In this document: piece by piece, positions 9,682-56,114 of the stretch | Numbering within the stretch: the first letter of the stretch is position 1 | How the letters are laid out: the number at the start of each line of letters is the position of its first letter | Assembly (NCBI RefSeq): GCF_027625935.1 | Contig: NZ_CP115300.1 | Coordinates: 3,410,001-3,474,000 of the forward strand | Length of the DNA stretch: 64,000 bases | Origin: Streptomyces camelliae | GTDB lineage: Bacteria; Actinomycetota; Actinomycetes; Streptomycetales; Streptomycetaceae | Direction of reading: 5' to 3' | Position numbers and translations under genes: made by a program | The notes under the pieces: generated by a model | What the model saw: only the letters and a program-made list of their open reading frames with translations | The model's database searches: none | What the model was told of the DNA's origin: nothing

Positions 9682-9713
9682 AAGGGCGCCCGGGGAAGTC
9701 CCCGGGCGCCCTT
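9682..9713. terminator. Bidirectional terminator between convergent genes
   Basis: A perfect 14-bp stem, AAGGGCGCCCGGGG (9682-9695) and CCCCGGGCGCCCTT (9700-9713), with loop AAGT. It lies between the convergent PP2C and PBP genes and can terminate both. Confidence 0.9.
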
Positions 9714-52078: not shown

Positions 52079-53290
52079 ATGCAGGTGATCCAGTCGACCA
52101 AGCTCGCCAACGTCTGTTACGAGATCCGGGGACCGGTGCTCCAGGAGGCGATGCGGCTGGAGGCGGCCGGTCACCGCATCCTCAAGCTGAACACCGGCAA
52201 CCCCGCCGCCTTCGGTTTCGAGTGCCCCCCGGAGATCCTGGAGGACATCCTCCGGAACGTCTCGACGGCGCACGGCTACGGCGACGCCAAGGGCCTGCTG
52301 GCCGCCCGGCGCGCGGTCGTCATGCACAACCAGACCCTCGGCATCGAGACGGACGTCGAGCACGTCTTCATCGGCAACGGCGTCTCCGAGCTGATCGTGA
52401 TGGCCATGCAGGGCCTGCTGGACGACGGCGACGAGGTCCTCGTACCGGCGCCGGACTACCCGCTGTGGACCGCCGCCGTCTCCCTCGCCGGCGGCACCGC
52501 CGTCCACTACCGCTGCGACGAGCAGGCGGACTGGACGCCCGACCTCGCCGACATCGAGCGCAAGGTCACGGACCGCACCAAGGCGATCGTGATCATCAAC
52601 CCGAACAACCCGACGGGCGCGGTCTACGACGAGCCGGTGCTCAAGGGGCTGACGGACATCGCCCGGCGGCACAATCTGCTGGTCTGCTCCGACGAGATCT
52701 ACGACAAGATCCTCTACGACGGCGCCACGCACACCCCGACCGCGAAGGTCGCCCCCGATCTGCTCACCCTCACCTTCAACGGCATGTCGAAGGCGTACCG
52801 GGTGGCCGGGTACCGGGTGGGCTGGATGTCGATCTCCGGGCCGCGCGCCCACGCCGACTCCTACATCGAAGGCCTGACGATCCTGGCGAACATGCGGCTG
52901 TGCGCCAACATGCCAGGACAGCACGGGGTCGTCGCCGCGCTCAGCGGACGCCAGTCGATCAACGACCTCGTACTGCCGGGCGGCCGGCTGAAGGAGCAGC
53001 TGGACACCGCGTACGACCTGCTGACGCAGATCCCGGGCGTGAGCTGTGTACGGCCGAAGGGCGCGCTGTATCTCTTCCCGCGCCTCGACCCCCAGGTCTT
53101 CAAGATCAACGACGACCGCCGGATGGTCCTGGACCTGCTGCGCCAGGAAAAGATCATGGTCGTGCAGGGGACGGGCTTCAACTGGCCCGAGCCCGATCAC
53201 TTCCGGGTGGTGACCCTGCCGACGGTCGGCGACCTGAAGGACGCGATCACCCGGATCGGGAACTTCCTGGACGGCTACAGCCAGGCATAG
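52079..53290 (+). CDS. PLP-dependent aminotransferase (AlaT/AlaA-like)
   Basis: The 403-residue class I/II aminotransferase has SELIVMAMQGLLDDGDEVLVPAPDYPLW, IIINPNNPTGAVYDEP, and the PLP lysine in FNGMSKAYRVAGYRVGW, then the C-terminal domain ending FRVVTLPTVGDLKDAITRI. It closely resembles the alanine aminotransferases used in E. coli and mycobacteria to link pyruvate and glutamate. ATG 52079 begins the family N-terminus (MQVIQSTKLANVCYEIRGP). It is monocistronic or read into the small gene after it. Confidence 0.94.
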   Translation: MQVIQSTKLANVCYEIRGPVLQEAMRLEAAGHRILKLNTGNPAAFGFECPPEILEDILRNVSTAHGYGDAKGLLAARRAVVMHNQTLGIETDVEHVFIGNGVSELIVMAMQGLLDDGDEVLVPAPDYPLWTAAVSLAGGTAVHYRCDEQADWTPDLADIERKVTDRTKAIVIINPNNPTGAVYDEPVLKGLTDIARRHNLLVCSDEIYDKILYDGATHTPTAKVAPDLLTLTFNGMSKAYRVAGYRVGWMSISGPRAHADSYIEGLTILANMRLCANMPGQHGVVAALSGRQSINDLVLPGGRLKEQLDTAYDLLTQIPGVSCVRPKGALYLFPRLDPQVFKINDDRRMVLDLLRQEKIMVVQGTGFNWPEPDHFRVVTLPTVGDLKDAITRIGNFLDGYSQA

Positions 53291-53340
53291 GACCGACAGC
53301 GATGCGCGAACGGGCTCAACTTTAGACGAGATCTAAGCTA

Positions 53341-53374
53341 GGATGGCCTCCTGTCAGAGCACAGGAGGCCATCC
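53341..53374 (+). promoter_or_regulatory. RBS-sequestering hairpin before the small protein gene
   Basis: GGATGGCCTCCTGT (53341-53354) and ACAGGAGGCCATCC (53361-53374) form a perfect 14-bp stem with a 6-base loop, ending one base before ATG 53376. The right arm contains the Shine-Dalgarno AGGAGG, so the folded RNA would hide the ribosome site. Just upstream lie TTAGA/TCTAA (53321-53335) and a TAAGCT box (53334-53339). Confidence 0.7.
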
Positions 53375-53375
53375 C

Positions 53376-53795
53376 ATGTACGAGCCGATCCGCACCAAGT
53401 CGGTCCACAGCACGATGGCCGACGCCTCCTCCGACTTTCCCCACCGGTCGCGCGAGGAGGAGCTGGACATCCAGCTCGCCGGTCACCTCGCCGCGCTGCT
53501 CGCCGTGACCGACGAGCTGCGTGGCTCGACCCCGTCGGCCGACCTGGACGGCGCGGCCGAGCGGCTCGTCGAGCAGGTGACCCGGCTCCGGGGCGGACGT
53601 GCCCCGCTGCGGGCGACGCCGTCCGCCGGTGCCGACCCCGCCGCCCTGCACCGGCGTGCACACACCCTCGCAGGCCGCGCGCTCGTGGTCGCCGCGTCCC
53701 GCGCCGACACGGCGGCGGCGATCCTCACGGCGGAGCGGATGGACGCCCACAGCTCCGCGCTGGCCGACCCGAAAGAGCTGAGCGCCGCCCACTGA
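53376..53795 (+). CDS. Small unknown actinobacterial protein
   Basis: The 139-residue product (ATG 53376, AGGAGG inside the hairpin arm) is rich in Ala, Arg, Asp and Glu and predicted helical: SREEELDIQLAGHLAALLAVTDELRG and AAERLVEQVTRLRGG, then HRRAHTLAGRALVVAASRADTAAAILTAERM. There is no signal peptide or membrane segment. From memory similar small proteins are encoded next to the PEP carboxykinase gene in other Streptomyces. Function unknown. The unusual leader hairpin suggests translational control. Confidence 0.8.
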   Translation: MYEPIRTKSVHSTMADASSDFPHRSREEELDIQLAGHLAALLAVTDELRGSTPSADLDGAAERLVEQVTRLRGGRAPLRATPSAGADPAALHRRAHTLAGRALVVAASRADTAAAILTAERMDAHSSALADPKELSAAH

Positions 53796-53995: not shown

Positions 53996-55816
53996 CTAAC
54001 CGAGGCGCTCCACCAGCGCGTGGTACTGGTCCCACAGCTCCTTCGGGGTGTGGTCTCCGAAGGTGTTCAGGTGCTCGGGGACCAGTGCGGCCTCCTCGCG
54101 CCAGACGTCCTTGTCGACCGTGAGCAGGAAGCCCAGGTCGGACTCGGACAGTTCGAGACCGTCGGTGTCGAGGGCCTCCTTGGTCGGCAGCACGCCGATC
54201 GGGGTCTCGACGCCCTCGGCCTTGCCGTCGAGGCGCTCCACGATCCACTTCAGGACGCGGGAGTTCTCGCCGAAGCCCGGCCAGACGAACTTACCCTCGT
54301 CGTTCTTGCGGAACCAGTTGACGTAGTAGATCTTCGGCAGCTTGGCCGCGTCCGCGGACTTGCCGACCTTGATCCAGTGCGCCATGTAGTCGCCCATGTT
54401 GTAGCCGCAGAACGGCAGCATCGCGAACGGGTCGCGGCGCAGCTCGCCGACCTTGCCCTCGGCCGCGGCGGTCTTCTCGGAGGCCACGTTGGCGCCGAGG
54501 AACACGCCGTGGTTCCAGTCGAAGGACTCCGTCACCAGCGGAACCGCGCTCGCGCGGCGGCCGCCGAAGAGGATCGCCGAGATCGGCACGCCCTTGGGGT
54601 CCTCCCACTCGGGCGCGATGATCGGGCACTGCGAGGCGGGGACGGTGAAGCGGGCGTTGGGGTGGGCGGCCGGGGCCTCGGAGGCCGGCGTCCAGTCGTT
54701 GCCCTTCCAGTCGGTCAGATGGGCGGGGGCCTCCTCGGTCATGCCCTCCCACCACACGTCGCCGTCGTCGGTGAGGGCGACGTTGGTGAAGACCGCGTTG
54801 CCCCACAGGGTCTTCATCGCGTTGGCGTTGGTGTGCTCACCGGTGCCGGGCGCGACGCCGAAGAAACCGGCCTCGGGGTTGATCGCGTACAGCCGGCCGT
54901 CCTCGCCGAAGCGCATCCAGGCGATGTCGTCGCCGATGGTCTCCACGGTCCAGCCGGAGATCGTGGGCTCCAGCATGGCGAGGTTGGTCTTGCCGCAGGC
55001 CGAAGGGAAGGCCGCCGCCACGTACTTCGACTCGCCCTGCGGAGGCGTGAGCTTGAGGATCAGCATGTGCTCGGCCAGCCAGCCCTCGTCACGCGCCATG
55101 ACGGAGGCGATACGCAGCGCGTAGCACTTCTTGCCGAGCAGGGCGTTGCCGCCGTAGCCGGAGCCGTAGGACCAGATCTCGCGGTCCTCGGGGAAGTGCG
55201 AGATGTACTTGGTGGAGTTGCACGGCCACGGAACGTCCTCCTGGCCCTCCTCCAGGGGGGCGCCGAGGCTGTGCACGGCCTTCACGAAGAAGCCCTCGGA
55301 GCCGAGCTCGTCCAGGACGGCCTGACCCATGCGCGTCATGGTGCGCATGGAGACGGCCACGTAGGCGGAGTCGGTGATCTCCACGCCGATCGCCGACAGC
55401 GGGGAGCCCAGCGGGCCCATGCAGAACGGGACGACGTACATGGTGCGGCCGCGCATGGAGCCGCGGAACAGGCCCTTCTCACCGGCGAAGATCTCCCGCA
55501 TCTCGGCGGGGGCCTTCCAGTGGTTGGTCGGGCCGGCGTCCTCCTCCTTCTCGGAGCAGATGAAGGTCCGGTCCTCGACGCGCGCGACGTCGGTCGGGTC
55601 GGAGGCGGCGTAGTAGGAGTGCGGGCGCTTGATCGGGTCGAGCTTCTTGAACGTCCCCTTGGCTACGAGCTCTTCGGCCAGCCGCTCGTACTCCGCCTCG
55701 GAGCCGTCGCACCAGACCACGCTGTCCGGCTGCGTCAGTTCGGCGATCTCGTTGACCCACGAGATCAGTTCCTGGTGGTTGGTGGGAACGCTGGAAGCCG
55801 AGTTGTCGCGCGCCAC
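53996..55816 (-). CDS. pckG: Phosphoenolpyruvate carboxykinase (GTP)
   Basis: The roughly 606-residue enzyme makes PEP from oxaloacetate with GTP, the entry step of gluconeogenesis. It shows the kinase loop [16 protein letters not shown] with the hyper-reactive cysteine, [20 protein letters not shown], and FGGRRA. The GTG start at 55816 follows AGGAGCAACC; the longer frame is not family-like. The N-terminal [21 protein letters not shown] is usual for actinobacterial PckG. It is divergent from the TrhA gene. Confidence 0.97.
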
Positions 55817-56114
55817 GGTTGCTCCTAAGTGAGGGATTTTGTCCTTGTTGCCCCGTGGGGGCTGCGACCCGGATGCTTCACGACTGATCTTGTGGTGCTC
55901 ATCCGGTGCCGACCGCACTCATTTGATCATCCGTCGCGAGCGCCCATCTGTCCAGGGGGAGCTACAGGTGAGCGGCGTGACGAAAGCCACGGTTTCCAGG
56001 CCTGTTTGCGTTCCCTTTACGTACAGGTTTGGGTCACCTGAAGGTCTTTTTGCGTTCGAACGACCAAGACCCGCGCTGACAAGCGACTTACGGTGCCGTA
56101 GGTACCATGCGGCC

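What the first reader, a model, noticed from the sequence alone, without database searches (positions are those of the whole stretch)
53341..53376. Perfect 14-bp hairpin hides the ribosome binding site of a small gene
GGATGGCCTCCTGT and ACAGGAGGCCATCC are exact inverted copies, and the Shine-Dalgarno AGGAGG is inside the right arm, one base before the ATG region. A stem this strong would block translation unless opened by a helicase, a protein, a ligand or a competing RNA, or unless transcription starts inside the left arm. A TAAGCT box at 53334-53339 could put the start at about 53346, which would leave only part of the left arm.
Basis: partly seen in the sequence, partly recalled or inferred. 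Interest (0 to 1): 0.72.

Follow-up and report, generated by a model that had tools for sequence, protein, structure and literature searches.

The report
Hairpin silencing read-through of peroxide-type gene
A small Streptomyces gene has a hairpin that probably hides its ribosome site only in long transcripts running in from the gene next door, while its own promoter, which looks like the peroxide-controlled catalase promoter, starts inside the hairpin and leaves the site open.

Summary
The hairpin is real: 14 of 14 pairs, 53341-53354 with 53361-53374, holding the Shine-Dalgarno (SD) AGGAGG (53363-53368) of a SCO4983-family gene (53376-53795). It ranks first of 768 sampled gene starts of this genome for an SD-burying stem.

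A conserved -10 box, TAGGAT (53339-53344), forms the foot of the left arm. Seven orthologues whose start codon follows this box by 6-7 nt (leaderless) put the start at about 53351-53353. The gene's own mRNA then lacks most of the left arm; the stem forms only in transcripts reading through from the aminotransferase upstream. Pairing is kept largely through G-U wobble (69 of 127 leaders pair at all 11 core positions, 2 of 127 by Watson-Crick alone) and in one other genus by double changes. I read it as a read-through silencer, like those of transposase genes.

The promoter carries TTRGACNNNGTCYAA ending two bases before the -10, as in the catA promoter beside the peroxide repressor CatR. Catalase was called the only known CatR target in 2015, so this is a candidate second one. 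The modelled protein is a ferritin-like four-helix bundle. No transcript, binding or translation data were available.

The parts
52079..53290 (+). PLP-dependent aminotransferase, co-directional upstream gene, source of read-through transcripts (inferred)
   Evidence: NCBIfam hits below their curated cut-offs but clear family; an aminotransferase in the same direction precedes the gene in 151 of 154 distinct leaders
53317..53322 (+). -35 region CAACTT, 16 nt before the -10 (same place as TTGACT of the catA promoter)
   Evidence: conserved in the 132 leaders; catA promoters TTGACT-N16-TAGGAT
53322..53336 (+). dyad TTAGACGAGATCTAA, candidate CatR/PerR-type operator, ending 2 nt before the -10
53339..53344 (+). 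-10 box TAGGAT; its last four bases are the first four of the left arm
   Evidence: exact in 121 of 132 distinct leaders
53341..53354 (+). left arm of the stem, mostly not transcribed from the gene's own promoter
   Evidence: best partner of the SD region lies at this place in 109 of 130 leaders
53351..53353 (+). predicted transcription start of the native mRNA
   Evidence: inferred from leaderless orthologues with 6-7 nt between -10 and start codon and the ~12-nt rule of PMC3160421
53355..53360 (+). loop
53361..53374 (+). right arm of the stem, containing the SD
53363..53368 (+). Shine-Dalgarno AGGAGG
   Evidence: sequence
53376..53795 (+). SCO4983-family protein, 139 aa, predicted four-helix bundle
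   Evidence: NF052236, 209.5 bits, cut-off 55; model

Best explanation
The hairpin is a read-through silencer built into a peroxide-type promoter. The gene has its own promoter (CAACTT, 16 nt, TAGGAT) with a CatR/PerR-like operator in the spacer. The -10 box is the foot of the left arm and transcription starts inside that arm, at about 53351-53353. The short native mRNA therefore lacks most of the left arm and exposes the SD. Polymerase arriving from the aminotransferase (stop codon ends 48 nt before the -10) copies the whole left arm, the stem folds and the SD is buried. The protein would be made only when its own promoter fires, probably when peroxide removes CatR. Shown by sequence and comparison: hairpin, promoter conservation, operator match to catA in sequence and register, gene order, conserved pairing. 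Inferred: start site, read-through, translational block, CatR binding, peroxide induction.
For: -10 TAGGAT on the left arm, exact in 121 of 132 leaders. Seven leaderless orthologues fix the -10 to start distance. SD unpaired probability is below 0.1 in 92 of 132 read-through folds and 0 of 132 native folds; z -5.9 against +1.7 in the window. Wobble-kept pairing: 69 of 127 pair at all 11 positions with G-U, 2 of 127 without. Double changes at pairs 6 and 7 in 5 of 5 leaders of genus g35. Own arms pair better than swapped ones in 77% of 147. Aminotransferase in front in 151 of 154, median 60 nt. Same dyad two bases before the -10 in catA promoters, 25 of 30, whose leaders lack the stem (median -13.4 against -22.9 kcal/mol).
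Against: No mapped 5' end, read-through or translation data. Within the Streptomyces set alone covariation is not above shuffles (78 of 500 reach the paired percentage), and double-change counts are as high in one slid control (18 against 17). The g35 changes are one lineage. In 2 of 2 leaders of the first set with TAGGCT the opposite arm did not follow. Stem strength does not clearly fall with distance from the aminotransferase (rho 0.16, P 0.07). The native SD is not wholly free (median unpaired 0.37). Some leaders of other genera lack a strong stem. The dyad is not enriched in the genome over the reversed control (3 against 9).
Confidence: 0.6

Rival explanations
1. Regulated leader: the stem forms in the main mRNA and is opened by heat, a ligand, a protein or a small RNA.
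For: Very strong stem over the SD; a start only 4 nt upstream of the predicted one, at 53347, would keep an 8-bp stem.
Against: The -10 lies on the left arm and leaderless orthologues set the start 6-7 nt after it. No Rfam family reaches its threshold in the window.
Confidence: 0.12
2. Transcription barrier or 3'-end stabiliser of the aminotransferase mRNA: the stem ends or protects the upstream transcript, and hiding the SD is a side effect.
For: It follows the upstream gene closely and needs the same RNA stem.
Against: No T-run terminator at 53200-53450. It does not explain why one arm is the -10 and the other the SD. It could act together with the main reading.
Confidence: 0.13
3. DNA operator or cruciform: the palindrome binds a repressor over -10 and start.
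For: Perfect DNA palindrome in this window. A similar hairpin elsewhere in this genome has a conserved operator-like core.
Against: Only 2 of 127 leaders are Watson-Crick over 11 pairs; 120 of 127 contain G-U pairs. The sequence of both arms differs between genera while the upstream dyad stays.
Confidence: 0.06
4. No function: complementarity by chance between a conserved -10 region and a conserved SD region.
For: Both arms overlap constrained sites, and covariation inside Streptomyces is not above shuffles.
Against: GCCATCC between SD and start codon is conserved although it is neither promoter nor SD. Inner-shuffled left arms pair worse by 6.2 kcal/mol on average. Both arms changed together in g35. 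First of 768 gene starts.
Confidence: 0.06

Closest known systems
Tn10/IS10 (and IS50) transposase genes: RNA fold that hides the ribosome site in transcripts from external promoters (Davis, Simons and Kleckner 1985, title seen in the reference list of PMC2965389; its content and the IS50 case are recalled)
   Same: Native start inside one arm of an inverted repeat; the fold forms only in longer transcripts and buries the ribosome site.
   Different: Here a chromosomal gene beside a conserved housekeeping gene, not a mobile element; the arm contains the -10 box of a peroxide-type promoter.
Phage T4 late genes such as e, whose early long transcripts hide the ribosome site (recalled, no call)
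   Same: Same gene, two transcripts, only the short one translatable.
   Different: Phage timing against insulation from a neighbour.
catA promoter of Streptomyces, repressed by CatR/PerR (PMC5288332 passages)
   Same: TTRGACNNNGTCYA dyad ending 2 nt before TAGGAT; -35 sixteen nt before the -10.
   Different: catA is divergent from catR (checked by family search in this genome only) and its leader lacks the SD-hiding stem.

Membership tests
SCO4983 family (NF052236) | score above the curated cut-off | tested here: met
   209.5 bits against 55; five orthologues of other genera also above it
Transposase-type read-through silencers (IS10/IS50) | native promoter starts inside the left arm | tested here: inconclusive
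   -10 on the left arm and leaderless orthologues say so; no mapped 5' end
Transposase-type read-through silencers (IS10/IS50) | stem buries the ribosome site in longer transcripts only | tested here: met
   by computed folds only
Transposase-type read-through silencers (IS10/IS50) | part of a mobile element | tested here: not met
   same neighbour gene in 151 of 154 distinct leaders, so it works like one but is not a member
Transposase-type read-through silencers (IS10/IS50) | read-through transcripts poorly translated | not testable with these tools
   needs reporters
CatR (PerR-type) regulon | operator as in the catA promoter, same register | tested here: met
   the own-genome site carries one mismatch of the 15-nt consensus
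CatR (PerR-type) regulon | CatR binding and peroxide induction | not testable with these tools
   needs experiments
Known riboswitch, RNA thermometer or other Rfam family | match at the Rfam gathering score | tested here: not met
   0 matches in the window
Intrinsic terminator | stem followed by a T-run | tested here: not met
   0 found at 53200-53450
Ferritin-like superfamily (Dps, bacterioferritin) | ferritin-like four-helix fold | tested here: inconclusive

The most novel reading that the evidence does not exclude
A two-level lock on a second member of the Streptomyces CatR peroxide regulon: a catA-like promoter controls transcription, and a stem that uses the promoter's own -10 box as its foot silences translation of any transcript that does not start there. 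The locked gene encodes a ferritin-like four-helix protein with three invariant histidines. Some orthologues of another genus reach the same end by having no leader at all.
Probability: 0.5. Interest if true: 0.75.

Novelty: new variant of a known kind. Interest (0 to 1): 0.6.

Why it matters
Read-through silencing by a stem that contains the promoter is, to my knowledge, known mainly from transposons and phages. Here it would be a conserved device of a chromosomal gene, suggesting that genes in tight co-directional order can be insulated without a terminator. It also offers a directly testable second target for CatR, whose regulon had catalase as its only known member in 2015 (PMC4530454, abstract passage), and a function lead for a protein family named only after a locus tag.

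Tried and rejected
Start at the ATG inside the left arm (53343, in frame here): rejected. The distance from the -10 to the start codon varies between species, so the frame is not kept, while MYEP is invariant in 26 aligned proteins.

Search of the own genome with the whole promoter motif: only this site with up to 3 mismatches. The looser ACTTTAGAC-N11-TAGGAT gave 3 further sites at 3 mismatches, below the reversed control. The dyad alone gave 3 sites with up to 1 mismatch against 9 for the reversed control, so the count is not above chance; what counts is that one of the three lies in the catA-catR gap.

Stem strength against distance from the aminotransferase: not significant. Covariation inside the Streptomyces set: not above shuffles. 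Hpt domain in Pfam: E 0.16, below its cut-off. Foldseek search of the model: not run, machine busy; the VIA table shows only 50 entries, so other helical bundles are not excluded.

Rows dropped: 5 of 181 loci gave no leader by my pattern (L113, L167, L169, L173, L175) and 22 of 176 leaders were duplicates, leaving 154. Seven leaderless ones were left out of pairing tests (147 kept) and 11 more had no GGAG anchor with room (136 kept). The leader pattern demands TTRGA-N5-TCYAA, and that demands TCYAA-N2-TA, so those columns are fixed by selection. My group S holds one leader (L102, same as L148) that the genome tool puts in another genus.

Papers: passages only, by the find function, of PMC4895711, PMC3160421, PMC8780764, PMC4530454, PMC5288332 and PMC2965389; also of PMC4265352, PMC8450116, PMC6733600 and PMC5006887, from which nothing was used. 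SCO4983 gave 0 papers and TTTAGAC with Streptomyces 0; most subscription journals are not held and supplements could not be opened.

Full report
The observation. The inverted repeat is exact: 53341-53354 with 53361-53374, loop of 6. The SD AGGAGG (53363-53368) is in the right arm and the start codon is at 53376. Perfect arms this long occur at two places in the window and in none of 20 simulated windows. In 768 crudely called SD-bearing gene starts from 1.26 Mb of the same genome, this one has the strongest SD-burying stem. The gene belongs to the SCO4983 family. The gene before it is an aminotransferase in the same direction.

The promoter. I collected leaders of orthologues: 132 distinct ones in the first set, 154 distinct ones when other genera were added. 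In the first set CAACTTTAGAC-N4-TCYAA-N2-TAGGAT is nearly fixed: TAGGAT is exact in 121 of 132 and TTAGA in 132 of 132 (TCYAA and the first TA were required by the search pattern). TANNNT is the -10 motif found at 80.4% of S. coelicolor starts (PMC4895711, passages). TAGGAT covers 53339-53344, so the foot of the left arm is the -10 box. Seven of 24 distinct leaders from other genera (L156-L160, L163, L165, all of genus g31) keep the dyad and a -10 (TAGGCT or TATGCT) but have the start codon 6 or 7 nt after it. A -10 signal about 12 bp before the start codon marks leaderless genes (PMC3160421, passages), so these show where transcription starts. Transferred to the window this gives 53351-53352; the nearest purine is G53353. 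This is inference; no 5' end was available.

What the stem can do. Folded from 53301, the 100-nt RNA has z = -5.9 with the SD fully paired. Folded from 53351 it has z = +1.7 and the stem is gone. Over 132 leaders, SD unpaired probability is below 0.1 in 92 for a read-through transcript and in none for a native one. The native SD is not wholly free (median 0.37, above 0.5 in 20 of 132). If transcription began at 53347 an 8-bp stem would remain, so the exact start matters.

Is the stem conserved as RNA? In 109 of 130 leaders of the Streptomyces set the best partner of the SD region is the stretch at the -10. Of 127 that could be aligned without gaps, 69 pair at all 11 core positions when G-U is allowed, 96 have at most one mismatch, 5 have four or more, and only 2 are Watson-Crick throughout. 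The perfect palindrome of the window is thus the exception; the rule is a stem with G-U pairs, which argues for RNA and against a DNA operator. Own arms pair better than arms swapped between unlike species by 2.1 kcal/mol on average, in 77% of 147 leaders, and better than inner-shuffled left arms by 6.2 kcal/mol, in 95% of 130. In genus g35 all 5 leaders changed both sides of pairs 6 and 7, for example GGATGCACTCCT with AGGAGTGCATCC in L149, and stay paired. With g35 included, 0 of 500 shuffles reach the paired percentage or the number of double-change cells; the percentage (89.5) is also far above the slid controls (at most 56). Against this, the Streptomyces set alone shows no covariation beyond shuffles (78 of 500 reach it), the g35 changes are one lineage, and one slid control has as many double changes (18 against 17). 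In L155 the -10 is TAGGCT and the opposite arm reads CAGCC instead of CATCC, a matching change seen once; in L073 and L118 the same -10 change is not matched. Among leaders of other genera several have only weak pairing (for example L171, L172, L182).

Why such a stem? In 151 of 154 distinct leaders an aminotransferase gene in the same direction precedes the gene. The median distance from its stop codon to the -10 is 60 nt; in 148 it is 13-180 nt and in three 807-1489 nt by my estimate. Of the other three, L107 has only 148 nt of flank, and in L043 and L170 none was found. In L014, L046 and L069 the coding sequence runs into the operator itself. No T-run terminator is seen at 53200-53450. Polymerases may therefore often run in from upstream (inferred), and a stem that forms only then hides the SD only then. 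Leaderless orthologues would reach the same end by another road, since their read-through transcripts offer no SD. Stem strength does not clearly depend on the distance (rho 0.16, P 0.07, n = 126).

The operator. A search of the own genome for the dyad found three sites with at most one mismatch, fewer than the reversed control (9). One of the other two lies between a catalase gene and a divergent Fur-family gene, as in the catA-catR pair. NCBIfam's PerR models hit the Fur-family protein below their cut-offs, so the name CatR rests on gene order and family. In 30 catR-type loci from 26 genomes (26 first and 4 second copies) the dyad is upstream with at most one mismatch in 26 and at most two in 29. 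In 25 of 30 it ends two bases before a -10-like box, 24 times TAGGAT, on the strand opposite catR, with TTGACT 16 nt before it. In SCO4983 leaders the dyad ends two bases before the -10 in 153 of 154. So both promoters share sequence and register. CatR is an orthologue of PerR and derepresses catA when oxidised (PMC5288332, passages). KatA1 was called the only known representative of the CatR regulon in 2015 (PMC4530454, abstract passage). A useful control: leaders on the catA side, with the same promoter, lack the stem (median -13.4 against -22.9 kcal/mol, 25 and 130 leaders). That a catalase stands opposite catR was checked by family search only in this genome. Most SCO4983 dyads of the Streptomyces set have one mismatch to the consensus (104 of 130; 14 have none, 12 have two), and I saw no genome-by-genome matching of the two dyads.

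Verdict. The best reading is a read-through silencer on a peroxide-type promoter. It works like the transposase read-through protection of IS10/IS50 and matches no Rfam family.

Noticed in passing
L240:1372-2703 (-), own genome C1:6081372-6082703: FAD-binding oxidase gene (PF01565) with another long hairpin over its SD and a possible -10 (TAGCCT) in the left arm. The inner core TGAC-G-...TGTCA recurs in 11 of 12 upstream regions printed, so it looks like an operator.
   Followed up: partly
L156-L160, L163, L165: Orthologues of genus g31 in which the start codon lies 6-7 nt after the -10, that is leaderless; other members of the same genus have leaders of 47-72 nt from the -10.
   Followed up: partly
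53376-53795: Invariant H37, H92, H96 and D111 in a predicted ferritin-like four-helix bundle suggest a metal site.
   Followed up: partly
L312-L315 and further rows: 18 of 26 genomes carry a second close copy of catR (above 75% identity); the four second copies fetched each have the dyad upstream within two mismatches.
   Followed up: no
9682-9713: The only other perfect 14-bp hairpin of the window, arms AAGGGCGCCCGGGG, loop of 4.
   Followed up: no
53996-55822 (-): PEP carboxykinase gene runs convergent to the SCO4983 gene; in S. coelicolor PEPCK is reported as a target of sRNA scr5239 (PMC7025569, seen only in the listing).
   Followed up: no
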